A DNA stretch of 43,640 nucleotides, taken from NCBI GenBank assembly GCA_027013225.1, contig JALUXU010000052.1:1-43640 (forward strand). Reading direction: 5' to 3'. Within the stretch, counting starts at the first letter, position 1; each line of letters starts with the position of its first letter. The DNA comes from Acidihalobacter sp. Lineage in GTDB: Bacteria; Pseudomonadota; Gammaproteobacteria; DSM-5130; Acidihalobacteraceae. Below are positions 1-17,850 of the stretch, piece after piece. Both the position numbers and the translations under genes were made by a program. Below the pieces are notes generated by a model, which was not told the DNA's origin, made no database searches, and was given only the letters and a program-made list of their open reading frames with translations.

Positions 1-870
1 CGGGTGTTGTTGATAAACCGAAAGAGGAGGCCCCGAGATGAAGGTGTTTGGCCTTCAAGGCGAAATCATGCGTTCTGCCCGCCTGGCAGACAAGGTTTTT
101 GATGATCCCGAAGGTGATTTTTCGTCTCCAGCCGCTGGAATGGTTCGAGCGGCTGCGAAAGCGGCATGGCCTGACTGTGTAGATCAGGCGGCGGAGATTC
201 TGGGCGTGAGCCGGGCTACCCTGTACCGCTGGTGCCGGCGTTTGTCCGAGGCGGGCATCCAGGGTCTGAGATCCCGTTCCCGCCGCCCGCGGCGTGTTCG
301 GCGGCGTCCCTGGGCGCGGCGTGCGCCCTATGGACTGAAGGGTGAGCGCCCGGGGACCTGGTACAGGTGGATGTCTTGCACGTGCACCGGCAGCCGGGGG
401 TAACGGTCTACCACTTCACCGCCTGGGATGGTGCATCACGCTGGCGCGTGGGGCAGGTGTACAGCCGGGTGAGAAGCCGCTGTGGGGCGGATTTTCTCAA
501 GCCGCTTAAGGCCCGCAGCCCGTTTCCGATCCGGGCCATCCAGATCGATGGCGCCTCGGAATTCAAGGGCGACTTCGAGCAGGCCTGCCAGGAAGCGGGT
601 ATCGACCTCTATGTGCTGCCGCCGAAACGGCCCCAGCGCAATGGCGGGGTGGAACGGGCCAACGGCATCTGGCGCTACGCGTTCTATGCCAGCTACCCGC
701 TACCGACCACGATACGGGCGCTTCGCCCCCTGGTGCAATGGTGGGAACAGGTCTACAACCTGCTGCGCCCCCATCAGGCATTGAAACAGAGAACCCCAGC
801 CGAGTATCTTCGTGAGGCCGGGTATGAGGTCCCCGAGGTCTCCGTGTCTCATATGTACTGAACCAGGACA
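1..870 (+). mobile_element. IS481-like insertion sequence, left copy, start cut by window edge
   Basis: The element carries a helix-turn-helix plus DDE integrase transposase. Its right terminal repeat, read inward from base 870, begins TGTCCTGGTTCAG. This pairs with TGACCAGGTTCAG at the left end of the second copy at 43200, so the ends are defined by sequence. Comparison with the second copy shows that about 56 bases of the left end lie outside the window, giving a full length near 926 bp. That is short for IS481 elements because the transposase has lost an internal block. The element ends only 5 bp before the -35 box of tRNA-Thr. Target duplication cannot be seen. Confidence 0.85.
38..861 (+). 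pseudogene. IS481-like transposase, internally deleted and frame-disrupted
   Basis: Frame 1 (38-403) gives an N-terminal part with a helix-turn-helix around QAAEILGVSRATLYRW and an arginine-rich stretch. The -1 frame (from about 355 to 861) gives the DDE catalytic core: VQVDVLHV with the first Asp, IQIDGASEF with the second Asp, then NGGVE with the Glu 34 residues later. Full-length relatives have some 60-70 residues between the arginine-rich stretch and the first Asp; here only about 15 remain. The two frames could be joined by a -1 slip at CCCGGGG (349-355). Relative to the right copy, this one also has +1 (about 111-122) and +2 (about 177-182) insertions that scramble residues 25-50 before the frame is restored. 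Probably inactive alone. Confidence 0.8.
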
Positions 871-2396: not shown

Positions 2397-2932
2397 CTCT
2401 TCGTTGCTGATCAGATCTCGAAACCCTTTTCTAGCAACCGTGCGCCAACTTCCTCAAGTCAGCTGTGATCTCCCATTAGACCACCTCAGAGGAACAAGGG
2501 ACGAGCAAAGGGCTCCTAACCAATCTGCACAAAGCAGATGCTCAACACCTGATTTGTTTCTGTGGAAATACCGAAGTTGGGCAAGGGATATGTCAATCTA
2601 GCACAGACAGACCGGCCAGAAATTAGAGGCGAAAATTCTTTGATAATCCCAAACAAGGACTCTTTTTAGGCTCATTGCTGGATTAAAAGGACTCCCAGCG
2701 ACAATGTCAGTCTCATGAATTGAGGTGAAACTTACAAATTTGTATAACAATTGAGCCTAAACTCTGGTGTAGATTATGGCCTAGCGTCGAAATCACCAAC
2801 TATCCATGCATGAGGTCTCTACGAATTGAAAAATAATAGTAGCGTTAATAACCCCCTGCAATCCACCAGGCTTATATAGCTCGGATTCAAGATCGAAATA
2901 ATTTTTCTCACTCTTTCCTTAAGGAGATAGCG
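2397..2932. other. AT-rich region without a recognised gene
   Basis: About 535 bp between the decayed genes and the RND operon. Short open frames here have no family signature. Base composition is visibly more AT-rich than the core genes to the right. The only ordered structure I see is the repeat/palindrome block at 2718-2763 and the translation-start region just before 2935. Confidence 0.6.
2718..2763. promoter_or_regulatory. Operator-like direct repeat with central palindrome
   Basis: The pattern AATTGAG-N3-AAACT occurs at 2718-2732 and again at 2749-2763, exactly 31 bp apart, close to three helical turns. Between the two copies lies the palindrome ACAAATTTGT (2734-2743). This is about 170 bp before the first RND adaptor gene. 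Same-face spacing of a repeated motif around a palindrome suggests a regulator-binding site, but the regulator is unknown and no regulator gene lies beside it. Confidence 0.4.
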
Positions 2933-2938
2933 ATGTGA
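2921..2938 (+). promoter_or_regulatory. Ribosome site with AUG-stop mini-ORF overlapping a GTG start
   Basis: AAGGAG at 2921-2926 is followed 6 nt later by ATG TGA (2933-2938), a start codon directly followed by stop. The GTG start of the adaptor gene (2935) overlaps it, 8 nt from AAGGAG. Ribosomes choosing the ATG would terminate at once, so this could limit expression of the pump. It could also mean that the true start is the ATG at 2980. Confidence 0.45.
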
Positions 2939-3966
2939 GCAGCAACGATCATCGTGTGTTTCTCATCTTCCAAGGACTTATGGCCAGGATTTGCGAGAAT
3001 TCTCCAATTAAGCGTCTGACCCGAGCACATTCCCTAATTTTATCTGCGGTATTTGTTGTCTCAACCGCACATGCGGCAAACGGAATATCACTGTCAGCCG
3101 TAGGCATTCACCTTCCGTATGAAGCGCCCGCCCACGTAATCAGTCGATCACGATCCGATATCGCAGTACAAATCGACGGCCCTGTAAAAAGCGTGAACGT
3201 ATTTGAAGGGCAGACAGTGAGGAAAGGAGACGTTTTATTCACTATAGACTGCCGAAGTTATGTCTACGCCCTTAAACTCAAGGAGGTTGCGTTGACGCTC
3301 GCACAGAATAAAGCCGAGCTGGCGAAAGCCTCGCTGCAGCGCAGTCGGGCTAGATTACGCATCAGCACAATTTCAAAAGCCAAATTCGAATCTGATCAAT
3401 TGAATTATCAAACATCCCTTCTCAATGTAAGGACCGAAAAATTATATCGAGATAGTGCGCAACTTGCTGTCGATCGCTGCAAAGTATCTGCGCCATTCAG
3501 TGGCGTTGTCACCAGAATCGCGACCGGACAAGGGAGTTATTTGACCACGGGCACGGTGGTGATGTCGATGTCTGAAACCGAGCATCTTGAGGTCATAGCC
3601 AACCTGACATCCGACGAAATCAATTCTCTCATTCATTCTTCCAGAATAGATTTTGTTTTCGGAAAAACCCGATTCCCGCTTAAACTAAAAGTAGTAGAGC
3701 CTGTTATCAATCAGGCTACAGGTGCGCAGCGAGTTTACTTCGACTTGCCGCCAAAAGCCGCCCTGCCGATCAATCTTGCTGGCACATTACGATGGAAAGG
3801 GGAGCGTTTCCGCATTCCCCCCGACTATTTGATTCATGGAACGAATGGGCTTGGGGTATTGATCGACAGAGGCGGTAAATCAGTTTTTTTTCCAGTGCCT
3901 GCCGCCATTGACGGAATGCCCGTCATCATTCACCTTCCTGCGACCACAAAGATCATCAAACCATGA
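2935..3966 (+). CDS. RND efflux periplasmic adaptor subunit with alpha-hairpin
   Basis: A 343-residue membrane-fusion protein that would bridge an inner-membrane RND permease and an outer-membrane channel. A signal-like segment ends near residue 47 (STAHA); the N-terminal region is long if GTG 2935 is used, and more normal from ATG 2980. The first lipoyl half (VKSVNVFEGQTVRKGDVL, about 82-99) is followed by a roughly 75-residue charged helical hairpin, then the second half (CKVSAPFSGVVTRI) and a beta-barrel domain. The usual membrane-proximal C-terminal domain seems reduced. Its stop overlaps the start of the second adaptor by ATGA, so the two are made together. Substrate unknown. No His/Met-rich metal-binding tail is seen. 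Confidence 0.85.
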   Translation: MSSNDHRVFLIFQGLMARICENSPIKRLTRAHSLILSAVFVVSTAHAANGISLSAVGIHLPYEAPAHVISRSRSDIAVQIDGPVKSVNVFEGQTVRKGDVLFTIDCRSYVYALKLKEVALTLAQNKAELAKASLQRSRARLRISTISKAKFESDQLNYQTSLLNVRTEKLYRDSAQLAVDRCKVSAPFSGVVTRIATGQGSYLTTGTVVMSMSETEHLEVIANLTSDEINSLIHSSRIDFVFGKTRFPLKLKVVEPVINQATGAQRVYFDLPPKAALPINLAGTLRWKGERFRIPPDYLIHGTNGLGVLIDRGGKSVFFPVPAAIDGMPVIIHLPATTKIIKP

Positions 3967-4832
3967 CGCGGGTCAAAACACTCAAAATCATTATGGTTAT
4001 TTTGACTCTATTTTCGAGTGCGCCTTCATGGGCTCAGTCGATGCCTGTTACCGTAGCGATTGTGAACAAAGGCCCCATCAAACAGGTCTACCATGGATTC
4101 GCACGGGTTCAACCCCTTATGAAAACGCATCCAAGCAGTAGTTACGCTGGACGAATAGTTCAAATTCTTGCGCATGTCGGGGAGAAAGTATCCCTGAACC
4201 AACCACTCGCCCGGATAAAACCATTGAGCAAAAATCGCGATAACTCGTCTTTATTTGCCGCGGGCGGGGCTTACACGGTGGTGGCAAACGTCCCAGGAAT
4301 CATCGTTGGCGAGAATTATTCCCTAGGTGATGTTATTCCTTCTGGTGCCCCGGTTTTCACCCTCGTGCCAGATACCGGATTCCGTGTTGCTTTATCGATT
4401 CCCTTGCAATATTCCCCTGGGATTGACTATGCCACCAAAGCCACAATTCATCTCGCCTCAGGAGCTGCGCATGCCACGCCCAGCAGCATTCGGGCATTTG
4501 ATATGAGCGGAACCGGATATTTTTTGGTTGAGTTTGTGGTTACAAAAAATAAACCTGTTCTTGGCAGCGTCATTCCGGTGGATGTCGTCGTAAAACATGA
4601 CAATTCTGCTTTGTTGATACCGGCAAATGCGGTAGTAGAGAAAAACGGCGCATTTTTTGTTTTTGTGGTCAAAAATGGAAAAGCCATACAAACACTTGTG
4701 AAAATAGGAATTCAGACGCCAAGTAGTGTGCAAATACTCTCAGGACTTCATCCAGGAGAAAAGGTCGTGACGACCGGACAGTATTCCCTGGAAGATGGCG
4801 CAAAAGTCACCGTGGTTTCGACGGGTGGATAA
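3963..4832 (+). CDS. Second RND periplasmic adaptor, hairpin-less
   Basis: A 289-residue exported protein; the signal peptide is about residues 1-24 (cut near PSWA-QS). The two lipoyl halves are recognisable (GRIVQILAHVGEKVSLNQPL and VVANVPGIIVGENYSLGDVI) but only about 25 residues separate them, so there is no alpha-hairpin to reach an outer-membrane channel. In contrast it keeps a clear membrane-proximal domain (LLIPANAVVEKNGAFFVFVV through the GLHPGEKVVTTG motif). It thus complements the upstream adaptor, which has the hairpin but a weak C-terminal domain. The start overlaps the upstream stop (ATGA). The 3' end overlaps the permease start. Confidence 0.82.
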   Translation: MTRVKTLKIIMVILTLFSSAPSWAQSMPVTVAIVNKGPIKQVYHGFARVQPLMKTHPSSSYAGRIVQILAHVGEKVSLNQPLARIKPLSKNRDNSSLFAAGGAYTVVANVPGIIVGENYSLGDVIPSGAPVFTLVPDTGFRVALSIPLQYSPGIDYATKATIHLASGAAHATPSSIRAFDMSGTGYFLVEFVVTKNKPVLGSVIPVDVVVKHDNSALLIPANAVVEKNGAFFVFVVKNGKAIQTLVKIGIQTPSSVQILSGLHPGEKVVTTGQYSLEDGAKVTVVSTGG

Positions 4833-7800
4833 ATTCATACGGGGCATTCTTGCCAATCGCAAGAGCCTATTGTTCATCTACTTGCTACTGATTGCTTTTG
4901 CCGTGAGCATCGTGATGCATCAGCGGCAGGCGGTATTTCCCGATGTCAATTTTCCGAAGGCAGAATTCACTGTCGATGATGGACTTGCGCCGCTGAGCGA
5001 GATGGAAAAAGTATTCGCCAGGCCAATGGAAACATTGGCGCAATCTTCTGAAGGAGTGTTGAATTACAGCACCAAAATCGAGCGTGGAGTCGTCAAATTG
5101 AAAGTCGAATTTGATGGCCGGCGTAACTTCGCCCGTGATTTTCAACTCCTTAAAGGCAAGATAACCACTCTGGTACAGGGCACTCCGACACTCGGAGGCG
5201 CACCAGCTCAAGTCACCGCCAATCTGACCAATTCAAACAATTTCGCCATTCTCGGATACAGTCTGGTATCAAGAACCGCCAGTTATGTCGATCTACGCCG
5301 GGTAGTGGATACGCGTATACGACCGATACTTGAACAAATTCAAGGGGTAGGAAAAGTCGAGGTCATCGGCGGTAGCCTGCCAGAAATTCGGATAACGCTT
5401 GATCCGGCCAAGCTAGAGCAATACAAGCTGACGCCAGAAATGATAGCCAGTCAGATCAAGGCGTCTGAAAACACGAGGTTTCTTGGTCACTTTATCGCCT
5501 ATGGAAAATTGATCCTGGGCTTCAGTTCATCACATCTGGTAGGGCCTCGGGCGATTGCTGACATTCCTCTCAGAGCGGGAAGTCAATCGCTGCGGCTTGC
5601 GGACGTTGCCGATGTCCGCATGACGGGTACCTATCCTCAAACTCTGACTTCCACCGACCGTAAGCCATCGGTGCTATTCAATATTTATGGTGCACCCGGA
5701 GTGGATGTGGTTTCCTTATCTGCCGAAGTCGCTAGAGCCATTGATGGTATTCGTCCCTCACTACCGCCTTCAATGAAGGTTTCGCGCTGGTATTCACTTG
5801 CCGACTTCATCAAAAGTTCCCTTGACGGTGTGGGGAGGGACATCGTTATTGGCATTCTGATCGTGTCTTTGTCGGTGGTGTTATTTTTGCGAAATCTACG
5901 TGCTTCGATGCCTGTCATCGCTTCCATGCTGGTCACGGTGATCTTAACTTTTCTGGCTATGAAATACTTGGGAGAAACGCTCAATATAATGACGCTTGCT
6001 GGAATCAGCGCTGCCATCGGTTTAGTCGTCGACGATGCGATCGTCGCGGTAGAAAACATTACCCGCTTTCACGAAAAAGGGCTAGACAATGAAGCGGCCG
6101 TAGTAAGGGGCACAAAGGAAGTCTTATCACCTCTGTTATCATCAACCCTGACGACAATTTCTGTTTTTGCGCCTTTAGGGCTGTTGACCGGAATTACTGG
6201 ATTTTTATTTAAATCTTCGGCTTTGGTTATCATCGCCGCATTGTCGATTTCATTCGTGATGGCGGTGACTCTTGCCCCGATCTTGTCATTCTCGCTATTG
6301 CGCCCTGCCGGACGGGTGCATCCATCCCATTCGAAAAGTCCATTGCTGCAAAAGTATGAAGCTTTTCTTATCGCTATATTGAAATCTCCTTTGCGGGTCA
6401 TCGCTGTAGCCACAGTGGTTATCGGCTTGGCGTTCTATATCGGACTTAGCCTTCCTACTACTTATTTGCCCCAATGGGACGAAGGCACTTTCATCATGGA
6501 TATGGACACCACGCCCGGAACTTCTCGCGCCGAAATGGCGCGCAAAGTGGCAGGCGTTGAAAACGTGATTGCGCAACTTGGAATCATTCAGACCTATTCA
6601 ATGCAAATCGGTGACAGTGCCCTACGATCGAATCAGGCGCATTTCTATATGCACCCAAAACCGAAAGGCGCTACAGGAGGCGGCTCTGTTTTTCAAGCCA
6701 TGGATACTCTTCAGCATTCTCTGGAAACGAAATTCCCCAACCTCAATGTAGACTTGCACCAGATTCTTCCCGACCATTTCGGTGGTCTGGTTGGAAAAAA
6801 CAATGTAATCGCTATTGATATCTTCGGCGCAAATCCAAAGGATTTGTTAGCCGCTGGCAAGATAATTTCAGCCGCCATCGGTAAATTGCCAGAAGTCGCA
6901 CATGTCAAAATGAGCCCACCCCATAATGTGACCCAGTTCAGGCTCGTTCTCGACCCAGCTCGCTTGGCGAGCTACAAGCTGACTCGGGCCGAAGTGGTTT
7001 CTCAAGTTCAAGTGGCCATGCAAGGCAAAAACCTTGGTTATGTTCAGGCGCAGGGGCAGCAAGCGGAGATGCGAATGGTCTATCCCGATCATTGGCGCAG
7101 GCTCATGCCCGCACTTATGGACATGCCTATCTTTCGGGTTGACGGTAGCACCACTCCTCTGAGTGCGCTTGGACATCTTGAATTGCGTTCGGCTCCGGAT
7201 CGCATAACCCGCAAACAAGGCCACCTCTACCTGGCGATGAGCGCAAAAACCCGCAATACTGATCTTGGCGGAAATGCGGCGCGTATCTCTGCCATACTGG
7301 CCAAACTCCCCCTTCCGGCAGGAACCTATGCTCTGGTTTCTGGAGACTGGAAGTTGCAGGCACAAGCATTCGCTGAACTACGTTACGTATTCTTATTGGC
7401 GATTGCTGCTGTTTTCACTCTGCTCCTGATCTTTTTCCGCAGTTATGGAACTTCGTTGCTCATTTTGCTCAACACGCTGACGTCCCTTGCATTCGTGGTA
7501 TTCGGCATCTGGATTTTTCATACTCCCTTCAATGTGCCCACCTTCATGGGCCTGATTTCAGTCATCGGCATCGTGGTAAAAAACGCTATTTTAATCATGG
7601 CATTTGCCAACAACAATCTCAAAAAAGGCGAAGATAGCATTCGCGCGATCATAGATGCATGCCTGGTGAGAGCCCGCCCCATTCTTATGACATCAACAGC
7701 CGCGGTTCTCGGTTTTCTGCCCATGGCGCTCAGCAGCGGGCGCGGGGGTGAAATGATGCAGCCTTTTGCCGCAGCCGTGATCTATGGTGTACTCGGCGGA

Positions 7801-7881
7801 GTGGTTTCATCGCTGGTATTACTGCCGGCGATGTACGTCTTACTATCAAACTTCCAGCGGATACTCAAACGCCCCATTTGA
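4825..7881 (+). CDS. RND-family efflux transporter permease
   Basis: A proton-driven inner-membrane pump of about 1018 residues with the standard RND plan: one membrane helix, a large periplasmic loop, a helix bundle, a second loop and a last bundle. The TM4 proton-relay motif GLVVDDAIVAVEN has the paired Asp residues typical of hydrophobe/amphiphile exporters rather than the metal-exporter form. The second half has GLISVIGIVVKNAILIM and ends in LLPAMYVLL. I place the start at GTG 4825, overlapping the adaptor stop by 8 bp, because relatives begin about ten residues before the first helix. ATG 4795 is the alternative. The stop lies 29 bp from the convergent outer-membrane factor gene. Substrate cannot be told from sequence. 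Confidence 0.9.
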   Translation: MDKFIRGILANRKSLLFIYLLLIAFAVSIVMHQRQAVFPDVNFPKAEFTVDDGLAPLSEMEKVFARPMETLAQSSEGVLNYSTKIERGVVKLKVEFDGRRNFARDFQLLKGKITTLVQGTPTLGGAPAQVTANLTNSNNFAILGYSLVSRTASYVDLRRVVDTRIRPILEQIQGVGKVEVIGGSLPEIRITLDPAKLEQYKLTPEMIASQIKASENTRFLGHFIAYGKLILGFSSSHLVGPRAIADIPLRAGSQSLRLADVADVRMTGTYPQTLTSTDRKPSVLFNIYGAPGVDVVSLSAEVARAIDGIRPSLPPSMKVSRWYSLADFIKSSLDGVGRDIVIGILIVSLSVVLFLRNLRASMPVIASMLVTVILTFLAMKYLGETLNIMTLAGISAAIGLVVDDAIVAVENITRFHEKGLDNEAAVVRGTKEVLSPLLSSTLTTISVFAPLGLLTGITGFLFKSSALVIIAALSISFVMAVTLAPILSFSLLRPAGRVHPSHSKSPLLQKYEAFLIAILKSPLRVIAVATVVIGLAFYIGLSLPTTYLPQWDEGTFIMDMDTTPGTSRAEMARKVAGVENVIAQLGIIQTYSMQIGDSALRSNQAHFYMHPKPKGATGGGSVFQAMDTLQHSLETKFPNLNVDLHQILPDHFGGLVGKNNVIAIDIFGANPKDLLAAGKIISAAIGKLPEVAHVKMSPPHNVTQFRLVLDPARLASYKLTRAEVVSQVQVAMQGKNLGYVQAQGQQAEMRMVYPDHWRRLMPALMDMPIFRVDGSTTPLSALGHLELRSAPDRITRKQGHLYLAMSAKTRNTDLGGNAARISAILAKLPLPAGTYALVSGDWKLQAQAFAELRYVFLLAIAAVFTLLLIFFRSYGTSLLILLNTLTSLAFVVFGIWIFHTPFNVPTFMGLISVIGIVVKNAILIMAFANNNLKKGEDSIRAIIDACLVRARPILMTSTAAVLGFLPMALSSGRGGEMMQPFAAAVIYGVLGGVVSSLVLLPAMYVLLSNFQRILKRPI

Positions 7882-7910: not shown

Positions 7911-9275
7911 TCAGCCCGTCATCCATCCGCGTCCAGTGGCTACTTGAAGCCTTGCCCAAGCTAGGCCGGCATTCCGCTTTGCCTGAGCCAAAGCTAACTG
8001 CGCGTTGAATAGATCGCGTTCCGTAGTCAAAAGATCGAGGAGAGACGCGCTCCCAAGAGCATAATCCTTCGCATAGAGCTTACGCAGCCGATATAAGGAA
8101 TCAACGGCCTTAGTCCAGACGGTGACTTCTTTTTCGGCATTCAAGAACCGGCTTTGTTCACTCTGAACCTCCTGTACGGCTGTCAGAACACTTTTTTGCC
8201 ATTCCAGCTTTCGTTGCTCTGCTACTTTTATGGCCGCACGGCGCTTCGCATCCAGCGTGGATTGATTGAATAGCGGCAAGTTAAGGGTTGGACCGAAAGA
8301 CCAACTGTTGCTGCTACCCAGAGTGATCGATCCTCCAAGAGTCAAGCTTGGATACATATTTGCAGTTGCGACACCCACAGCTGCCACCGCCGCAGCGTAA
8401 GCACGCTCCGTTGCGCGGACGTCAGGTCGATTGCGAAGCAGATCGGCGGGTGAACCAATACCAGCACTCATCGCAGGCAAGGGTTGTGGCGCCTGTTTTT
8501 TCATGTTTGCCAGAATCGATCCAGCCGGTTCAGCCAACAGTGTTGCCAGAGAATAGACTGCCGCATCGAATCGGGCTTGTAGCGGCGGGAGTGCTGCAAC
8601 CACTTGTTCGTATCGGCTTTTCGCTAGTGTGACATCGAGATTGGATGCCGTGCCGATTTTCTTTTGTTTTTGAACAAGAAGATACATTTTGCGCCGATTT
8701 GCAATTGTTTTCTGGGTTAATTCCACGGCTCGCTGGTAATAACGCGCGTCAATATAGCTCCCTACAATGTTTGATAGAAAAGCGAGACGCGCAGCCATCG
8801 CGGAATATTCGCTGGCCTGGTAGTTTGCGCCGGCTTCCTCATGTAAGCGCCGCAAACGGCCGAAGATATCCAGCACATAATTCCCTCCCGCCATAACAGT
8901 ATCAATCGTGGTCGGAACGGCACCTCCGCCTCCGGTGCGGATGCTGCTGTAATCGATTGAACCATTAATGTGGGCTGGAATGCCACTGGCGGAGTATAGC
9001 GCCTGCAACTGAGCAGCCCGTTCCTTAGCAATTTTCAAATCGATATTCTGAGAGAGACCCCGCGCAACAAGGGTGTTCAGATACTTGTCATGCAAAGCCG
9101 ACCACCAGTTGGTTTGTATGGCACGCGTGGCGGCAGGCTGGCTAACTGCATAAGATCCTGCCAAGGCGATTTTTGGTGATGTGTAATTGGGCCCGACGGC
9201 AGCACAGCCGCTTAGCAAACCCGCACTCAAGGCCATGGAATAAATTAGTTTATGTGAGAGCAAAAAAGGTTTCAT
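7911..9275 (-). CDS. RND outer-membrane factor lipoprotein (NodT/TolC type)
   Basis: A 454-residue outer-membrane channel subunit. The start at 9275 gives MKPFLLSHKLIYSMALSAGL followed by lipobox LLSGC, so Cys24 would be acylated after signal removal. Family landmarks are GPNY just after the Cys, WWSAL, the duplicated OEP helical halves, NRPDVRATERAYAAAVAAVG and TERDLFNAQLALAQ. A longer open frame runs upstream to 9701 but crosses the IS110 remnant and is not needed. A weak ribosome site (AGGG) precedes 9275. The gene faces the permease tail to tail instead of following it, so it must have its own promoter, in or next to the IS110 remnant. Confidence 0.92.
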   Translation of the reverse strand: MKPFLLSHKLIYSMALSAGLLSGCAAVGPNYTSPKIALAGSYAVSQPAATRAIQTNWWSALHDKYLNTLVARGLSQNIDLKIAKERAAQLQALYSASGIPAHINGSIDYSSIRTGGGGAVPTTIDTVMAGGNYVLDIFGRLRRLHEEAGANYQASEYSAMAARLAFLSNIVGSYIDARYYQRAVELTQKTIANRRKMYLLVQKQKKIGTASNLDVTLAKSRYEQVVAALPPLQARFDAAVYSLATLLAEPAGSILANMKKQAPQPLPAMSAGIGSPADLLRNRPDVRATERAYAAAVAAVGVATANMYPSLTLGGSITLGSSNSWSFGPTLNLPLFNQSTLDAKRRAAIKVAEQRKLEWQKSVLTAVQEVQSEQSRFLNAEKEVTVWTKAVDSLYRLRKLYAKDYALGSASLLDLLTTERDLFNAQLALAQAKRNAGLAWARLQVATGRGWMTG

Positions 9276-9359: not shown

Positions 9360-9760
9360 CGGCGACAGTTCGGTGCATTCCAGAAAGACCGTCGGGCACT
9401 GGCCCAGTAGTGCGCTTCCCATCGGCCCGATAAGGTCGTCATGGAGAGCACGGGGATCTACTGGAAGAGTCCCTATGCGGCTTTGGAAAAGGTGGGGATC
9501 CAGGCCCTGATTTCGGCAAGTCCTCCAGAGGCGCTGCTCCGTCTGGTCAGCCGGCGGCTCGAGGCCAGCCAGGAGTTTCAGAGTCTTGTCATTCGCTGCG
9601 GGCACAAGTGTTTCATCATCGCGATTGTCCACAAGATGGTGCGCATCATCTACGCCATACTCTCGACTGGCACATACTACCGGGATGCCGACACAGACCA
9701 TGAGGCACTCAGTGTGCAGCGAGTCGCTTCTCGCTGGATCAAGAAACTGATTAAATCATC
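9360..9760 (+). pseudogene. IS110-family transposase remnant
   Basis: The frame reads FGAFQKDRRALAQ, a TAG stop at 9408-9410 where relatives usually have Trp, then PDKVVMESTGIYWKSPYAAL, the RuvC-like DEDD-domain segment of IS110 transposases. After QALI the sequence jumps to PPEALLRLVSRRLEASQE and soon after to CGHKCFIIAIVHKMVRIIYA, the C-terminal conserved part. The match fades near 9760 although the frame stays open to 9851. The middle of the protein and much of each end are lost, so it is inactive. It lies directly upstream of the outer-membrane factor gene, on the opposite strand. Confidence 0.8.
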
Positions 9761-9864
9761 AGCCAGCGTAAAGCGTCACCAACACCTGAATATGGCCCCA
9801 TCGGGGAGCCAGGCCCCGCCATGCCCACCTTATCGATTTCTTGCACAGTAAAGCGGTAAAGGTT

Positions 9865-9910: not shown

Positions 9911-10333
9911 TTATTGCTGAATTTCGCCTTGCATCCCGTCGTTGCTGTTGTCTTGATTGTGGCTTTCCTGATTATATTCGTCATGGCCGTATTCACCTTC
10001 GCCGCCCCCTTTTTCAGAATTTTCTAGCCCCTGGCTGAGGATTTTGCCGCTCATGGCATCGATCTTGACGGTATAGGCCTGTTTTTTGGCATCGACTATG
10101 TCGGCTTCCCAAACCCCTTTGCCGTTTTCGTCGTTGAAACTGACCCCGCTCACCGTACCCGGAACGGCGTTTTGGGCGATGTTTTTGGCCTGGTCGAGCG
10201 AGATTTTGGCTGCATGCAGCATTTGAGTTTCCACCGCAAGGGATTGTTCGCCGTGGTTCGAGGCGAGTGCCGCGCCGGCCGCCGTCAAGCCCAACACAGT
10301 CAATGTCGAGGCGATCAGGATTTTGGTTTTCAT
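9911..10333 (-). CDS. PepSY-domain periplasmic protein
   Basis: A 140-residue exported protein. The signal peptide is about residues 1-24 (TLTVLGLTAAGAALA then SN). One PepSY-type domain covers about 36-98: KISLDQAKNIAQNAVPG, then VWEADIVDAKKQAYTVKIDA and GKILSQG. The tail is hydrophilic, rich in Gly, Glu, His, Asn and Gln. PepSY proteins are thought to restrain proteases or bind ligands in the periplasm. The start is supported by AAGGAG 8 nt upstream of ATG. It lies downstream of, and on the same strand as, a histidine kinase gene after 275 bp. PepSY proteins are often found beside such kinases, so a sensing role is plausible but unproven. Confidence 0.85.
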   Translation of the reverse strand: MKTKILIASTLTVLGLTAAGAALASNHGEQSLAVETQMLHAAKISLDQAKNIAQNAVPGTVSGVSFNDENGKGVWEADIVDAKKQAYTVKIDAMSGKILSQGLENSEKGGGEGEYGHDEYNQESHNQDNSNDGMQGEIQQ

Positions 10334-10608
10334 GATGTAACTCCTTAAGTTGTGGGTGGACGGTCACCCCTTTGGTGTCCGTTGGTGATTACTTTACGCA
10401 GTGATTGTTGCGTGGATCTGGCCAGCGGTTTACATCTTGGTAAGGGAAGCCATAAACCGAGAGATTCAATTCAGATATTTCCTTCGGGAATGCGTTCTCG
10501 TGCCGATCTGGCACTTTCGGCAAGCGTTTTTTTCTTATCGATAGCTACAGGCTGGCCCAATCGTGCTCATCCGTCAGCGTGCTGAAGAAGGTCAAGGCAA
10601 ATACAGCT
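10334..10608. other. Intergenic region between PepSY gene and histidine kinase gene
   Basis: No gene seen. It contains a plus-strand hairpin TGCCGA...TCGGCA (10501-10522) followed by seven T (10527-10533). This looks like a weak intrinsic terminator but has no plus-strand gene to serve. The part next to 10333 must hold the PepSY ribosome site and possibly its own promoter. Confidence 0.4.
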
Positions 10609-11985
10609 TTAGGGGGCGCAGTCGGCATCCGTTGGAAATTGTACGCTGACTTTGAGGCCGGGGTGAGCATCTTCAAGCACGAGTCTGGCGCCATGAAAAC
10701 CTGCGATGGCCTTGACAAGGCTCAGGCCGAGTCCACTCCCTGGGTGGCTGCGGCTTTTATCCAGTCGATAGAAACGGCGAAGCACCCGTTCGCGTTCCTC
10801 GGTCGGGATACCGGGGCCGTTATCGCGTACCACCAGCGCTGGGGATTTGCCATGCATCTCGATGCCAAGCGTTATCCGCGTGCCTGGGGGACAGTGACGC
10901 AGGGCGTTTTCGATCAGGTTGGCTCCGAGCTGAATCAATAGTTCACGATCCCCGTGCACGCTGGAACGCTTTGTTGATCTGGCCGTTTCAAGCGTCATCT
11001 TTGCATCTTCTGCCACTTCGGCATAGATTTCATGCAGGGTGGCGGTGATCTCGTTGAGGTAAATACATTCGAATCGCGCCTCGCACGCACCTCCTTCGAG
11101 ACGGGCAATGCGCAACAAGGCTTCGAAAGTGGCGTTGAGATGATCCACCTGAGCGAGGGCGGCTTCCAATTCCTCACTCACCGCTTCGCCATGGATTGCC
11201 CGCGCTTGCGCCTCGAGCAGGCGGATTTTCAAACGGCTCAGGGGGGTCTTGAGATCATGGGCGATATCGACGCTGACCTGGCGGATGCCCTCGACCGTGG
11301 CCTGCAGATGGTTGAGCGCCTGATTGAGTTGGGCAGCAAGCTGGTCGATGTCGTTTTTGCGCCCGTCTCGCGGCACTCGGGAGGCCAGATCGCCGGCCGC
11401 CACCTTCTCCATGGTGCGACCAATGGCATTCAACCGACGCTGTGCACGCATGCCTAGCAATCCACCGCCACCGAGCGCGATCAGGGCAAGAAACAGCGTT
11501 GCCAGCGCGAATCCCTGGGCGGTGAAACTTTCCATGGCGTCTATGGCCCGCTGACTGGCCCCGACCGTCAACTCTAAATCATGTATGCGTCCCGTCAACA
11601 GGCGATAACGGGCCTCTCTGCGTAAGCCAAGTGCTGTGCCTGGTACACTCAGGAAGCCTTCTGGCAGGGGGCGTTTAGGGGTGAAGTTCCCCGCCAGCAT
11701 GCGGCCTTTTTGGGTGCGCGCCAGAAACAGACGTTGGCGTAAAGGCGCCGCTTGCACGTAGGCACGGAGCATATCGACGAAGTCGTGTTGATCGCTGTCT
11801 TTCTCGTAGGCGTTGGCGAGAACGGTGAAGGTCTCGCGCAGGGTTTGATCTTGTTCCCGCAACAGTTCGCGTTGCATCAGATGATAGGCGACCGCGCCGA
11901 TCAGCAGGTAAGCCAGCAGGCTGAGCGCAGCGGTCAGCAGTGCCGCGCGCAGCGCCGTGCTGCGCCAGATTTCAGTCGGGCGCAT
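10609..11985 (-). CDS. Sensor histidine kinase (HAMP-HisKA-HATPase)
   Basis: A 458-residue membrane kinase. Membrane helices are at about 13-37 and 155-178, with a periplasmic sensor region of about 115 residues between them that has no named fold I can recognise. A HAMP segment (about 179-232) leads to the phospho-acceptor helix VSVDIAHDLKTPLSRLK, with His243. The ATP-binding domain has the N-box (NLIENALRH, Asn356/360), G1 box DNGPGIP (388-394) and G2 box GSGLGLSL (416-423), so all catalytic features are present. Its start overlaps the response-regulator stop by 14 bp, which ensures paired expression. Neighbours suggest control of the adjacent exporter and PepSY protein; the signal is unknown. 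Confidence 0.93.
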   Translation of the reverse strand: MRPTEIWRSTALRAALLTAALSLLAYLLIGAVAYHLMQRELLREQDQTLRETFTVLANAYEKDSDQHDFVDMLRAYVQAAPLRQRLFLARTQKGRMLAGNFTPKRPLPEGFLSVPGTALGLRREARYRLLTGRIHDLELTVGASQRAIDAMESFTAQGFALATLFLALIALGGGGLLGMRAQRRLNAIGRTMEKVAAGDLASRVPRDGRKNDIDQLAAQLNQALNHLQATVEGIRQVSVDIAHDLKTPLSRLKIRLLEAQARAIHGEAVSEELEAALAQVDHLNATFEALLRIARLEGGACEARFECIYLNEITATLHEIYAEVAEDAKMTLETARSTKRSSVHGDRELLIQLGANLIENALRHCPPGTRITLGIEMHGKSPALVVRDNGPGIPTEERERVLRRFYRLDKSRSHPGSGLGLSLVKAIAGFHGARLVLEDAHPGLKVSVQFPTDADCAP

Positions 11986-12649
11986 GGAGAGTGTAACCGA
12001 GGTTGCGCTCGGTGTGGAGGAGCGGAGTGGAAAAGGGTTTGTCGATCTTGGCGCGCAGGCGGCTGATGTGGGTTTCTACCACACTGGTCTTGGGATCGAA
12101 GCGTAATCCCCAGACGTGTTCCAGCAGCATCGTTCGGGTGACGATGCGATCGGCGTTGCGCATAAGGTATTCAAGCAAACGGAATTCACGCGGCTGCAGG
12201 TCTATGGGGCGGCCGGCCCGTGTCACACGATGCCGCAGCCGGTCGAGTTCAAGATCCGCAACCCGCAGTACGGCATCTTCGGCAAAACCAGGCGCTCGAC
12301 GCGTCAGTGCCTGTACGCGGGCGGCCAGTTCGCTGAAGGCGAAAGGCTTGACCAGATAGTCATCTCCTCCCGCCTCCAGCCCCGCGACGCGGTCATCTAC
12401 GTCGCCGATGGCAGTGAGGAAGATTATCGGTGTGGTCACCTGCGCCGAGCGCAACGCGCGAACCAGCGGCAGACCTTCAAGACGCGGCAGCATGCGATCT
12501 ACGATGATCACCTCATAGCCTCCGGCCAGCGCCTGGGCCAGACCTTGCTTGCCATCTCCCAAAACGTCACAGACATGTCCCTGCTCGCGAAAGCCGCGGG
12601 CGATGTAGTTGGCTGTTTCGGAGTCATCTTCGATAAGCAGAATTTTCAT
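11972..12649 (-). CDS. OmpR/PhoB-family response regulator
   Basis: A 225-residue DNA-binding regulator. The receiver domain has the acidic pair EDD (residues 7-9), phospho-acceptor Asp51 in VIIVDRMLP, Thr79 in FLTA and Lys101 in DDYLVKPF. A winged-helix output domain follows (about 128-222), with LQPREFRLLEYLMRN and VVETHISRLRAKID. I use ATG 12649, where the receiver fold begins; an in-frame ATG at 12685 would add 12 residues with no ribosome site. It pairs with the overlapping kinase gene. The 105 bp to the upstream ABC permease gene could hold a promoter, or the whole block could be one transcript. Confidence 0.93.
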   Translation of the reverse strand: MKILLIEDDSETANYIARGFREQGHVCDVLGDGKQGLAQALAGGYEVIIVDRMLPRLEGLPLVRALRSAQVTTPIIFLTAIGDVDDRVAGLEAGGDDYLVKPFAFSELAARVQALTRRAPGFAEDAVLRVADLELDRLRHRVTRAGRPIDLQPREFRLLEYLMRNADRIVTRTMLLEHVWGLRFDPKTSVVETHISRLRAKIDKPFSTPLLHTERNLGYTLHAPD

Positions 12650-12754
12650 GTCGCCTACGGTAGTCCGGAAGGAATCATTAGGCAATATCCATGTGATTGC
12701 ATCGAGGAGAGTAAAGAGCAGCCAAGCAGCATAAGAAACAGAATAAATCCCCTC

Positions 12755-13861
12755 TTAGTTCAAGCGATGGCGAAAGAGCCATCCGGCAGCGGTGAGTGTG
12801 GTAAGGCCGATCAATGCCATTGGCCAGAATTGACCGATCAGCGCAGGAAAAGGCGCGGCTTCAAGGAAAACACCCCGCACTACAACCATGAAGTAGCGCA
12901 AGGGGTTCAAATAGGTCAAGTACTGCACCACGATGGGCATATTACTGATGGGCGTCGCGAAGCCAGAGAGAATGACCGACGGTACTAGAAACATGAACGC
13001 GCCCAAGAGGGCCTGTTGCAAGGTGGTGGCCATCGAAGAAATCATCAGTCCTATGCCTATGGCCGAGAGCGAGAACAAAAGAATGCCGGTGTAAAGGCTC
13101 AACAGTGAGCCGCGCAACGGCACCCCAAACCACCATGTCGCCAAAAAAATGAGAGCACTCGACTCAAGCAAGCCGATAATTAACCCGGGCATCGATTTGC
13201 CGATGAGAATCTCAAGCGGCCGCAACGGGGTTACCAACAGCTGATCGAAGGTGCCCTGTTCTCTTTCCCGGGCAACCGACAAGGCGGTGACCATGGTCAC
13301 TACAACCAGAAGAAGCAGGCCAATGATGCCTGGCACGATGAACCAGTGGCTTTCAAGGTTCGGATTGAACCAGGCGCGGGTGACGAGTTTGACCGGCGGC
13401 GGTTCGCCATGCTTTTCTGCCCAGCGGCGATTGAAACGCTCGATGATTTGACGGGCGTACCCCAAGGCGATCATGGCTGTATTGGAATTTCGTCCATCGA
13501 GTATGATCTGTACCCGGGCATTCTCACCGCGGCGTAAATTGCTGGAAAAATCGGGCCCGATGGACAAGATGATGAGAGCTTTCTGATCATCAATGAGCTT
13601 TTTCAGCCCATGGGAGTTGCGCCGCATGGCTACGCGTTCAAAATGCTTCGAGCCGATAAAATCCGAGATCAGGCGCTGGGCGATGGTGCCGTTATCCTGG
13701 TTGTAAATTGCGAGAGGGACGTGATTCAGATCGAATGTGGCCGCATAGCTGAACAGGAAGAGCTGAAATAGAGGCGGCACGATGATGATGATGCGTTCAC
13801 GGCGGTCTTTGAGTATGGCCAGGAACTCCTTGATTACCAGTGCGAACACACGTTGCCACAT
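12755..13861 (-). CDS. ybhR: ABC-2 type exporter permease, YbhR-like
   Basis: A 368-residue inner-membrane permease. An N-terminal helix (RIIIIVPPLFQLFLFSYAAT) precedes a large extracytoplasmic domain of about 130 residues. Five further helices follow, with the ABC-2 signature region around FDQLLVTPLRPLEILIGK and the closing LTYLNPLRYFMVVVRGVF. It is the last of four genes in the order adaptor, double ATPase, permease, permease, matching E. coli ybhG-F-S-R. E. coli YbhFSR has been linked to drug and cation export; the substrate here is unknown. Six bp separate it from the first permease gene, so the two permeases probably form a heterodimer. Confidence 0.85.
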   Translation of the reverse strand: MWQRVFALVIKEFLAILKDRRERIIIIVPPLFQLFLFSYAATFDLNHVPLAIYNQDNGTIAQRLISDFIGSKHFERVAMRRNSHGLKKLIDDQKALIILSIGPDFSSNLRRGENARVQIILDGRNSNTAMIALGYARQIIERFNRRWAEKHGEPPPVKLVTRAWFNPNLESHWFIVPGIIGLLLLVVVTMVTALSVAREREQGTFDQLLVTPLRPLEILIGKSMPGLIIGLLESSALIFLATWWFGVPLRGSLLSLYTGILLFSLSAIGIGLMISSMATTLQQALLGAFMFLVPSVILSGFATPISNMPIVVQYLTYLNPLRYFMVVVRGVFLEAAPFPALIGQFWPMALIGLTTLTAAGWLFRHRLN

Positions 13862-13867
13862 AGGGTA

Positions 13868-14998
13868 TCACTCGAGCCGTTTATGAATCCTAAGGCGCGC
13901 CATGCCGAGGAAGAGCAAAGCCATCAAGGCCAAGGCCAAGGTGTTCGGCAAAATGACGGCCCATACATCGCCGGCCAAAAACAGGGTATGCAGCACATTG
14001 ACGAAATAGCGTGCAGCGACGATATGAGTCAGAGCTTGCAGCCAGCCCGGCATGCTGCTGATGTCGAACAAAAACCCTGACAACATGAAAGCCGGCAGAA
14101 AAGTCACAAGAATGGCGATCAGGCTGGCGACGAATTGATTGCGGGCAAGGATGGAAATAAGCAGGCCCATGCCAAGGGAGGCCAACAGAAAGAGGGCAGA
14201 CACAAAGAGGAGGAGGAACAGGTTGCCGCGTAATGGGACGGCGAACAGGAAGATGCCCATAACGAGTGAAAAGAGCATACTACACATGCCGAGGATGAAA
14301 TAGGGAATGAGCTTCCCCAGCAATATTTCTCGCAGGGTAACCGGCGTAACCATGAGCGCTTCCAGTGTGCCGCGTTCCCATTCGCGCGCCATCACCAAGG
14401 CTGTCAGAAGTGCACCGATGAGGGTCATGATGACTGCGATCAAGCCAGGCACCAGGTATTCCCGGCTGCGTACCTCGGGATTGAACCATACGCGTGCTTC
14501 CAGCATTACGGGTGTGCTTATGGGTATGCCGCGACGTTCGGCGCGCTGTTCCAGCCAGTTGTTGATGGTCGCTCCTACATAACCTTTGATCAGGCGGGCC
14601 TGATTGGCGTCCACCCCGTTGACGATCAGTTGTATGGGCGCCGTGTTGTCACTTTCCATCTGGGCGGAGAAATTACTTTGCAGATGCACGATCGCATCGA
14701 TGCGCCGTGTCATCAATTCCGCCTGGGCTTCACGCATGTTTGGCAAGCGGCGCGGCGAAAAATACCGCGAATGTTCGAATGCACTGAACAGGCTGGCGCT
14801 GGCGACGCCGGGCGAGTCAGCCACCATGCCCACCGGCACATGCTTGGCATCGAGAGAAACGCCATAGCCGAATATCAAAAGCAGCACGACGGGCATGACA
14901 AAAGCGATAGCCAAGCTGGAAGGATCGCGAAGTATCTGCTTGAACTCTTTGTACAGCAGGCCGCGCAGGCGCATCTGGCTGCCGCCGCGAGAATTCAT
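13868..14998 (-). CDS. ybhS: ABC-2 type exporter permease, YbhS-like
   Basis: A 376-residue permease of the same plan as its downstream neighbour. The first helix (LAIAFVMPVVLLLIFGYGVS) is followed by a large outer domain, a helix with the sequence MAREWERGTLEALMVTPVTL at its cytoplasmic side, and then a helix bundle. The start at 14998 overlaps the ATPase stop as ATGA, and an internal Met at residue 9 is a weaker alternative. It is the probable partner of the second permease, powered by the double-ATPase protein. Confidence 0.86.
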   Translation of the reverse strand: MNSRGGSQMRLRGLLYKEFKQILRDPSSLAIAFVMPVVLLLIFGYGVSLDAKHVPVGMVADSPGVASASLFSAFEHSRYFSPRRLPNMREAQAELMTRRIDAIVHLQSNFSAQMESDNTAPIQLIVNGVDANQARLIKGYVGATINNWLEQRAERRGIPISTPVMLEARVWFNPEVRSREYLVPGLIAVIMTLIGALLTALVMAREWERGTLEALMVTPVTLREILLGKLIPYFILGMCSMLFSLVMGIFLFAVPLRGNLFLLLFVSALFLLASLGMGLLISILARNQFVASLIAILVTFLPAFMLSGFLFDISSMPGWLQALTHIVAARYFVNVLHTLFLAGDVWAVILPNTLALALMALLFLGMARLRIHKRLE

Positions 14999-16710
14999 GC
15001 GGCGCGCTCCATTTTCTGGATCAAGGTAATGAAGGCATCTTCCATTTTCGGCCGTGGGTTATCGGGCGTTGCGGCGCGGGCGCGAATTGCCGCTGGCGTA
15101 TCAATAGCGAGAATGCGCCCTTGGGCCATAATGGCCAGGCGATCGCAATATTCCGCCTCTTGCATGAAGTGGGTGGTGACCATAATCGTCACGCCTTCTT
15201 CGGCCAAGGCATTGATGCGCGACCAGAAGGCCCTGCGTTCGAGCGGATCGACGCCGGAGGTGGGTTCGTCAAGAAAGAGAATCGCGGGTTCGTGCATCAA
15301 GGCGCAGGCCATGGCCAAGCGCTGCTTGTAACCCAGGGGCTGATCATCGGCGATAGCATCGGCGGCTGTTCGCAGGTCAAACTCGTCTAGCGCCCAATCG
15401 AGTCTTTGTTTGTAGCGCATACCTTTCAAGCCATACGTTCGCGCAAAAAAACGCAAGTTGTCCATCACCCCTAAATGGCCATAGAGCGAAAAGCGCTGCG
15501 CCATGTAACCGATCCGCGCCCGCGCTTTTGCGGGAGCCTTGCGCAAATCCACCCCGTTGACGGCTAGTTGGCCTTCACTAGGAGGAAGCAGGCCGCAGAG
15601 CATGCGGAAAGTAGTCGACTTGCCGGCGCCATTGGCACCGAGCAAACCAAAGATTTCTCCCTTTTTGACTGCGAAACTGATATGCCGCACGGCCCAAAAA
15701 TCGCCGAAGCGCCGGCTCACGTTGCTGGCGACAATCACCGTTTCCTTCTTGAACGTGACAGGCGCCCTCTCTATAGAGGTATGCGTAGGACGTCTCTGTT
15801 GAGCCAGGATCGCCACAAAAGCATCCTCGAATCGAGGTTCCATGGGGGACCAAAGAATGCCTTTCAGATTCGGGGGTGAGGCTTTGTCAGCCAACAGCGC
15901 GCGTACTCCTTCGCCTTCGAGAACGGCATCCAGCACCTCTTCGCGGCGAATCAATCCGTCTTGCAAACGCCGGCGAAGGACGCCAGGCTGCTCGGCATAC
16001 CAGACCCGTCCCTGGAATCGCTGGCTAAACTCTTGTGGAGTACCTTGTCCTAGCACCTGTCCTTGATACAGCAAGACCACTTGTGCACAGCGTTCCGCTT
16101 CATTGAGATAAGTCGTCGACAGCAAAACGCTCATGCCTTCTTCGGCAACCAAACCCTTGATGATCTGCCAGAGTTCCTGTCGCGAAAGCGGATCCACGCC
16201 GACCGTGGGTTCGTCGAGCAACAGTAATTTGGGCGGACGGACAAGTGTGCAGGCCAGCCCCAGTTTCTGTTTCATGCCGCCCGAGAGGTGACCCGCGAGG
16301 CGTTTTGTGAAACGCTCGAGAGCGGTCAGGTGGAGTAATTCGGCATAACGGGCTGGGCGTTCGGCAGGGGGCAGTCCCTGCAGGTCTGCGTATAGCGCGA
16401 GATTCTCGGCAACCGTGAGGTCTTCATACAAACCGAAGCGTTGTGGCATGTAACCGATTTTTGACTGGATGGCAAGCGGATCCAGCACGGCATCGACACC
16501 CAATACCTGAATCTGTCCGGCGTCGGGCCGCAGCAGGCCGGCGACGAGACGCATGAGGGTCGTCTTTCCGGCGCCATCTGGGCCGATCAGGCCGGTAATG
16601 CATCCGCATTGGGCATCGAGATTCACCTTGTCCAGCGCCTTGATCAGGCGTCGTCCCGCACGAAAATGCTTTTCGAGGTTGCCAACGTGCAATGCGGTCT
16701 GCTTATTCAT
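14995..16710 (-). CDS. ybhF: Double-domain ABC ATPase, YbhF-like
   Basis: A 571-residue protein with two fused nucleotide-binding domains, close to E. coli YbhF (about 578). Domain 1 has Walker A GPDGAGKT (43-50), signature LSGGMKQKL (142-150) and Walker B LLLLDEP (162-168). Domain 2 has Walker A GANGAGKST (358-366), a divergent signature PLGYKQRLAMA (457-467) and Walker B ILFLDEP (476-482). The switch histidine is present in domain 2 (VTTHFMQEAE) but replaced by Thr in domain 1 (LSTTYLNEAE), so the two ATP sites should differ in activity. I start at ATG 16710, which overlaps the adaptor stop by 8 bp. The longer open frame upstream lies within the adaptor gene. Confidence 0.9.
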   Translation of the reverse strand: MNKQTALHVGNLEKHFRAGRRLIKALDKVNLDAQCGCITGLIGPDGAGKTTLMRLVAGLLRPDAGQIQVLGVDAVLDPLAIQSKIGYMPQRFGLYEDLTVAENLALYADLQGLPPAERPARYAELLHLTALERFTKRLAGHLSGGMKQKLGLACTLVRPPKLLLLDEPTVGVDPLSRQELWQIIKGLVAEEGMSVLLSTTYLNEAERCAQVVLLYQGQVLGQGTPQEFSQRFQGRVWYAEQPGVLRRRLQDGLIRREEVLDAVLEGEGVRALLADKASPPNLKGILWSPMEPRFEDAFVAILAQQRRPTHTSIERAPVTFKKETVIVASNVSRRFGDFWAVRHISFAVKKGEIFGLLGANGAGKSTTFRMLCGLLPPSEGQLAVNGVDLRKAPAKARARIGYMAQRFSLYGHLGVMDNLRFFARTYGLKGMRYKQRLDWALDEFDLRTAADAIADDQPLGYKQRLAMACALMHEPAILFLDEPTSGVDPLERRAFWSRINALAEEGVTIMVTTHFMQEAEYCDRLAIMAQGRILAIDTPAAIRARAATPDNPRPKMEDAFITLIQKMERAA

Positions 16711-17770: not shown

Positions 17771-17850
17771 ATTCGACACCCTCAAACAAGAGGCTCTTTG
17801 TCTAGCTATTTGCAGATTGCCGCAGGCGGCAGGCATATATCGAGGCGAAA

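What the first reader, a model, noticed from the sequence alone, without database searches (positions are those of the whole stretch)
2935..7881. RND pump with adaptor functions split over two proteins
The first adaptor has the lipoyl hairpin but a weak membrane-proximal domain. The second has no hairpin but a strong membrane-proximal domain. They are translationally coupled and could form a mixed ring in which one contacts the outer-membrane channel and the other the permease. Most RND operons have a single full adaptor.
Basis: partly seen in the sequence, partly recalled or inferred. Interest (0 to 1): 0.55.

Follow-up and report, generated by a model that had tools for sequence, protein, structure and literature searches.

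The report
Two-adaptor efflux pump, complementary adaptor losses
A bacterial efflux-pump operon carries two different connector proteins instead of one, the first keeping the rod that should reach the outer-membrane channel and the second keeping the foot that should grip the inner-membrane pump; two-connector pumps are known, but a pair with complementary missing parts could help explain how connectors without the rod work.

Summary
A1 (2935-3966) has lipoyl, hairpin and barrel domains and a shortened membrane-proximal (MP) domain. A2 (3963-4832) has lipoyl, barrel and a complete MP domain but a 21-residue stretch instead of a hairpin. ATGA joins the genes; an RND permease (4795-7881) with intact proton-relay motifs follows. 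The reading is partly supported.

A1 and A2 are neither a split nor a duplicated adaptor. A1 falls inside a family (36 other loci) that serves singly with a different RND permease clade, and ends at least 9 residues before those members. A2 falls outside it; its nearest fold is BesA, the known hairpinless adaptor. Hairpinless adaptors also stand alone in Legionella. Both kinds thus occur singly, and none of 78 comparison loci has two adaptors before one permease. The cluster lies in low-GC, probably acquired DNA; no ortholog was found.

Most likely it is a TriABC-like mixed 3+3 ring: A2 docks and drives the permease, A1 supplies the hairpins. In TriABC both adaptors have all domains; here the losses are complementary: a new variant of a known kind. 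The mixed ring is inferred, not shown.

The parts
2921..2926 (+). AAGGAG Shine-Dalgarno-like site, 8 nt before the GTG start of A1
   Evidence: read in the sequence
2935..3966 (+). A1, first adaptor: lipoyl, hairpin, barrel, shortened MP domain; in-frame ATG at 2980 is an alternative start; signal-peptide-like N-terminus (by eye)
   Evidence: ORF; Pfam/NCBIfam; family alignment; tree; model
3253..3474 (+). A1 alpha-hairpin (residues 92-165 counted from the ATG at 2980)
   Evidence: AlphaFold2 helices 92-127 and 133-165; aligned to family X hairpins
3814..3963 (+). A1 MP remainder: 50 residues from the barrel/MP border, ending at least 9 residues before each of the 36 other family X members
   Evidence: low pLDDT
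3963..4832 (+). A2, second adaptor: lipoyl, barrel, complete MP domain, no hairpin; signal-peptide-like N-terminus (by eye)
   Evidence: ORF; BesA as top fold match
4221..4271 (+). loop between the lipoyl halves of A2 (residues 87-103 of the model) where other adaptors have the hairpin
4599..4829 (+). A2 MP domain (residues 213-289)
   Evidence: 18 of 28 conserved columns of the single-adaptor family kept
4795..7881 (+). RND permease; in-frame GTG at 4825 is an alternative start; proton-relay motifs VVDDAIV, VVKNAIL, RARPILMTS intact
   Evidence: ACR_tran 567.5 bits; motifs; trees
7911..9275 (-). NodT-type outer-membrane channel lipoprotein (454 aa from MKPFLL), convergent with the permease; candidate partner, not in the same operon
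   Evidence: TIGR01845 258 bits; coordinates
9911..10333 (-). PepSY-domain protein
   Evidence: PF03413
10609..12685 (-). sensor kinase (10609-11985) and response regulator (11972-12685), of the kinds seen beside many of the single-adaptor relatives; possible regulators

Best explanation
A drug/metabolite efflux pump of RND type with two adaptors of separate origin. A2, a BesA-like hairpinless adaptor, docks on and stimulates the permease through its complete MP and barrel domains. A1, recruited from the adaptor family of another RND pump, packs beside A2 through the lipoyl and barrel domains that both have and reaches the outer-membrane channel (probably the convergent NodT protein) with its hairpin. 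The ring would be 3 A1 + 3 A2 on a permease trimer, so only three hairpins meet the channel. Shown: domain content, gene overlap, separate origins, intact proton-relay motifs. Inferred: co-assembly, stoichiometry, division of labour, choice of channel. Substrate unknown.
For: Complementary domain content measured on 86 adaptors and seen in both models. ATGA coupling and overlap with the permease. A2's best fold matches are the three BesA entries, Z 17.2-17.6 over 248-259 residues and ranks 1-8 by Foldseek. At columns conserved in 70% or more of the relatives, A1 keeps 6 of 10 in the hairpin and 9 of 17 in the barrel, and A2 keeps 18 of 28 in the MP domain, which speaks for retained function of those parts. 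The four other full-length RND permeases of the genome each have their own adaptor with a hairpin, so no orphan permease was found that awaits A1. Precedent: in TriABC-OpmH two adaptors are both required, and a 3:(3+3):3 assembly is favoured; the review passage gives TriA the stabilising of the channel contact and TriB the activation of the pump, though its wording is not consistent (PMC13328181, passages; PMC4338810, passages).
Against: No ortholog of the trio was found, so co-occurrence cannot be tested: the best other permease matches are 28-31% identical in 369 class genomes, none is better than E 3e-123 in 388 phylum genomes, and A2's best is E 9e-18. Members of A1's family, and hairpinless adaptors elsewhere, serve alone. 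A1's home permease clade is not the window permease's, so A1 may not fit this pump. A1 and A2 have each drifted further than any compared relative: A1 keeps 58% of conserved columns against 59-93% in 36 family members, A2 44% against 58-93% in 21 single adaptors; A2 keeps only 4 of 13 barrel columns. A1 still has most of an MP region, so its role need not be limited to the channel, and the low confidence of that region comes from a thin 8-row alignment without its own family. No complex was modelled.
Confidence: 0.5

Rival explanations
1. A2 alone serves the permease in the way BesA serves BesB, without hairpins, and A1 is a passenger or works with another permease.
For: Hairpinless adaptors stand alone in Borrelia (PMC3807786, passages) and in two Legionella copper-type operons. 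A1's family belongs to a different permease clade.
Against: A1 overlaps A2 by ATGA. No family X permease without an adaptor was found in the genome: the other four full-length RND permeases have adaptors of their own; two short weak matches (E 2e-8 and 2e-4) were not followed up.
Confidence: 0.25
2. A1 forms the working adaptor ring by itself and A2 is a helper that tunes the permease or stabilises the ring.
For: Members of A1's family work as sole adaptors with a similar MP region; A1 keeps 8 of 11 conserved MP columns.
Against: A1 ends 9 or more residues before every other compared member of its family and its MP region is modelled with pLDDT mostly under 50. A2, not A1, carries the MP domain that resembles the adaptors of the permease's nearest relatives.
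Confidence: 0.12
3. A decaying or badly assembled acquired cluster with no working pump.
For: GC 45-53% at 2.5-9.5 kb against 54-62% in the flanks up to 20 kb, transposase-like frames nearby (by eye), long terminal branches for all three proteins, and both adaptors keep fewer conserved columns than any compared relative.
Against: All three frames are open, many family-conserved residues and the proton-relay motifs are kept, and no leftover of a longer A1 end was seen by eye in the other two frames at the junction.
Confidence: 0.1

Closest known systems
TriABC-OpmH of Pseudomonas aeruginosa (PDB 6vej, taken as the TriA-TriB fusion; the identity of the entry is recalled)
   Same: two adaptor genes before one RND permease, proposed mixed 3+3 ring with different roles; 6vej is the best PDB sequence match of A2 and second best of A1
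   Different: both halves of 6vej match nearly the whole adaptor profile, hairpin and MP included; here the losses are complementary and the adaptors come from different groups
BesA of Borrelia burgdorferi (PDB 4kks, 4kkt, 4kku)
   Same: lipoyl, barrel and MP domains with a short loop instead of the hairpin; best fold match of A2
   Different: no hairpin-encoding gene was seen near besCAB (PMC3807786, passages); A2 has A1
Hairpinless adaptors of Legionella copper-type RND operons (L064, L066)
   Same: no hairpin
   Different: single adaptor, channel gene upstream in the same direction, other permease clade
VexIJK of Vibrio cholerae
   Same: two adaptor genes in one RND operon, significance unknown (PMC10225521, passages)
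   Different: domain content of VexI and VexJ not examined here
DSY0927 of Desulfitobacterium hafniense
   Same: one adaptor unit without coiled coil and one RND-type unit together (PMC4338810, passages)
   Different: fused in one chain, ABC-type transporter, discussed there under Gram-positive bacteria
Family X: unnamed single adaptors, one in each of L176-L211
   Same: A1 falls inside it (SH-aLRT 100)
   Different: single adaptors with a longer C-terminus and another permease clade

Membership tests
RND-type periplasmic adaptor (TIGR01730) | score over the curated cut-off of the family model | tested here: met
   A1 112.2 and A2 112.3 bits against 94.9
RND-type periplasmic adaptor (TIGR01730) | all four domains complete in one chain | tested here: not met
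   A2 lacks the hairpin, A1 ends inside the MP domain; known variants such as BesA also lack one
BesA-type hairpinless adaptor (A2) | lipoyl, barrel, MP present and a short loop for the hairpin | tested here: met
   21-residue stretch; BesA top fold match Z 17.2-17.6
BesA-type hairpinless adaptor (A2) | no hairpin-bearing adaptor gene nearby | tested here: not met
   A1 overlaps A2 by ATGA
TriABC-type two-adaptor RND pump | two adaptor genes directly before one RND permease | tested here: met
TriABC-type two-adaptor RND pump | both adaptors with hairpin and complete MP domain, as in TriA and TriB | tested here: not met
   for 6vej, for A1/A2
TriABC-type two-adaptor RND pump | both adaptors required and in one complex | not testable with these tools
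   needs deletion and cross-linking
Family X adaptor (A1) | grouping with the family in a tree | tested here: met
   SH-aLRT 100, quick tree
Family X adaptor (A1) | followed by a permease of the X clade | tested here: not met
   window permease lies outside the X clade (12 permeases, support 100), quick tree
RND permease (ACR_tran) | family score and proton-relay motifs | tested here: met
   567.5 bits over 28; motifs

The most novel reading that the evidence does not exclude
A natural hetero-hexameric adaptor ring made of domain-complementing proteins taken from two different pump families, in which three hairpin-less subunits grip the permease and only three hairpins from the partner engage the channel. 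If true, it shows a way in which a hairpinless adaptor such as BesA can be made to work by a hairpin-bearing partner.
Probability: 0.35. Interest if true: 0.6.

Novelty: new variant of a known kind. Interest (0 to 1): 0.4.

Why it matters
[quoted passage not shown] Here a hairpinless adaptor is coupled to a hairpin-bearing one with a shortened MP domain. Deleting or swapping either would separate permease docking from channel docking in a natural system.

Tried and rejected
Rejected: (1) One adaptor split in two (fission): both proteins carry lipoyl and barrel (HlyD) domains. (2) Recent tandem duplication with complementary loss: A1 groups with family X (SH-aLRT 100) and A2 does not. (3) A frameshift or sequencing error that cut A1: the other two frames at the junction show, by eye, no family C-terminus, and A2's signal-peptide-like start follows at once. 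(4) Conserved two-adaptor operons in relatives: 0 of 41 and 0 of 37 comparison loci.

Led nowhere: a scan for relatives of A2 in genome contigs gave four loci with distant, longer adaptors and no ortholog. Scans of viral contigs with the permease, A1 and A2 gave no relatives. Profile-guided scans were not possible because the alignments are too divergent. A first permease search at E 1e-150 found only the window's own genome. Two literature searches that combined two adaptors or a lost hairpin with RND pumps listed nothing; that is no proof of absence in print. The permease's grouping with L122/L123 (99/97; 87) joins two long branches and is not relied on.

Limits: the adaptor tree and the second permease tree are 'quick' trees. 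In the adaptor alignment, reading frames over 420 aa were shortened by script at an internal start and the hairpin columns were left out of the tree. Thresholds were set by hand: one search used adaptor ORFs over 60 bits, one search used E 1e-14, the surveys saw only frames of 90 aa or more, and 37 of the 47 other genomes with a match were followed up with their neighbourhoods. In one search three adaptors from the A1-homolog loci (L188_1137, L200_2203, L212) were left out of family X because they do not group with it.
Full report
What is there. The region holds three intact overlapping reading frames: A1 (2935-3966, 343 aa, or 328 aa from the ATG at 2980), A2 (3963-4832, 289 aa) and an RND permease (4795-7881, 1028 aa). 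A1 and A2 share the ATGA of stop and start, and the permease frame overlaps the end of A2, with an in-frame GTG at 4825 as alternative start. A convergent NodT-type channel lipoprotein (7911-9275), a PepSY protein, a sensor kinase and a response regulator follow on the other strand.

Domains. Pfam finds HlyD and lipoyl-type domains in both adaptors, the lipoyl hit of A2 being weak and under its cut-off. RND_mfp (TIGR01730) matches A1 at profile positions 15-228 of 322, and its best stretch in A2 is 136-321, each protein over the curated cut-off. In a joint alignment of 86 adaptor sequences the stretch between the lipoyl halves is 21 residues in A2, 14 in two Legionella adaptors, and 57-132 in the other 83. 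After the barrel/MP border A1 has 50 residues and the others 60-91, except one ABC-type adaptor of the window with 17. It gives A1 (mean 72.6) a confident hairpin and a fair barrel, with residues 276-328 mostly under 50. The best fold matches of A2 are the three entries of BesA, Z 17.2-17.6 over 248-259 residues, rmsd 6.1-6.3 (ranks 1-8 by Foldseek). A1's best matches are MexC/AcrA-type adaptors, Z 17.1 at best; in most adaptor rows the match ends at model residue 271-284, in two (5nik, 6iok) at 313 and 328.

Relatives of the permease. In 369 genomes of the class the best 19 other permease matches are 28-31% identical, E 4e-126 to 7e-109; in 388 genomes of the phylum none is better than E 3e-123. 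Around the nearest ones the usual layout is channel, one adaptor and permease, often with PepSY, kinase and regulator. None of 41 comparison loci in that call has two adaptors before one permease; these include the genome's four other RND operons. Three of the 41 are not informative: L077 is cut by its contig and shows no adaptor, and L065 and L067 show no RND permease. The window permease is a divergent member: 27-29% to the near relatives. The mean pairwise identity of 19 relatives' rows, which include two distant second permeases of the same loci, is 51%. The window permease keeps the AcrB-like Asp-Asp, Lys and Arg motifs.

Where A1 comes from. A1 finds relatives over nearly its whole mature length in the class: 48 of 369 genomes match at E 1e-14 or better, the own one included, the best other at E 1.6e-38. 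I fetched 37 neighbourhoods. In 36 of them an adaptor groups with A1 (SH-aLRT 100, quick tree). Each of these 36 has an RND permease on the same strand downstream, at least three of them cut by contig ends and one (L199) about 1.8 kb away. None of the 37 shows a second adaptor before the same permease. Four loci need comment: L188 and L200 hold a further adaptor that has its own permease, L192 has a weak 600-aa match on the other strand, and L212's adaptor does not group with A1. The permeases of this family X (12 tested) form a clade (100) that excludes the window permease. The 36 family members run 9-21 residues beyond A1's end; three have only 9-10. A1 keeps 8 of 11 conserved MP columns, and only 3 conserved columns lie beyond its end. 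So A1's weak MP domain is partly a family trait and partly a real loss of the C-terminal end.

Where A2 comes from. A2 is not in family X, and its exact place in the tree is open. It keeps 18 of 28 conserved MP columns of the single-adaptor family of the nearest permeases, but only 4 of 13 barrel columns. Over all conserved columns A1 (58%) and A2 (44%) both lie below every compared relative (59-93% and 58-93%), so both have diverged fast; this is compatible with relaxed constraint as well as with a new role. Hairpinless adaptors of the same build occur alone in two Legionella operons, as the BesA paper had noted for Legionella (PMC3807786, passages).

Origin of the cluster. GC is 45-53% from about 2.5 to 9.5 kb and 54-62%, mostly 57-62%, in the flanks up to 20 kb. 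No ortholog of A2 turned up in 95 relatives, in 369 class genomes or in the scan of genome contigs. This suggests an acquired cluster put together from two pump lineages.

Mechanism. In TriABC-OpmH two adaptors are needed, different roles are proposed, and a 3:(3+3):3 assembly is favoured (PMC13328181 and PMC4338810, passages); the sentence on roles in PMC13328181 is not consistent in itself. Both halves of 6vej match nearly the whole adaptor profile. In the window, A2 would dock the permease, A1 would reach the channel, and the lipoyl and barrel domains of both would build the ring. I rate this 0.5. The chief rival (0.25) is that A2 works alone like BesA. The evidence for division of labour is anatomical only.

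Known or new. Two-adaptor RND pumps are known (TriABC; VexIJK, PMC10225521, passages), and so are hairpinless adaptors and a fused pair of a coiled-coil-less and an RND-type adaptor, DSY0927 (PMC4338810, passages). I found no report of separate adaptors with complementary losses, in listings of the open library only. I call it a new variant of a known kind, seen so far in one genome.

Noticed in passing
window 2933-2938: An ATG directly followed by TGA (start-stop) overlaps the GTG start of A1, 6 nt after AAGGAG; possibly chance, possibly an effect on A1 translation.
   Followed up: no
loci: 22 of 42 permease rows (L069, L070, L077, L124 and one row of each of L100-L117): The single-adaptor RND permeases, many beside PepSY and two-component genes, have Glu where AcrB-like permeases have the relay Lys (mostly VTEVAIF instead of VVKNAIL); the window permease has Lys.
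   Followed up: partly
L064 5908-6828 and L066 5980-6954: Legionella plasmid RND operons, both near a multicopper-oxidase gene, have a single adaptor without any hairpin.
   Followed up: partly
window 9911-12685: PepSY, kinase and regulator on the minus strand resemble those beside the single-adaptor RND relatives (regulator 285 bits to that of L114), while the channel next to them has its best other match at only 83 bits, in L131 of the same genus.
   Followed up: partly
window 38-861 and 9441-9851: Reading frames that look by eye like an integrase-type transposase and an IS110-type fragment (not searched), at the edges of the low-GC cluster.
   Followed up: no
window 12755-17836, minus strand: An adaptor, a long frame with two ABC ATPase units (judged by eye) and two ABC-2 permeases form a separate export cluster next to the two-component genes.
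   Followed up: no
L188, L200, L101, L103, L106, L117: Two adaptor-permease pairs lie close together in one neighbourhood, some cut by the end of the stretch, a possible route by which adaptors of different pump families come to sit side by side.
   Followed up: no
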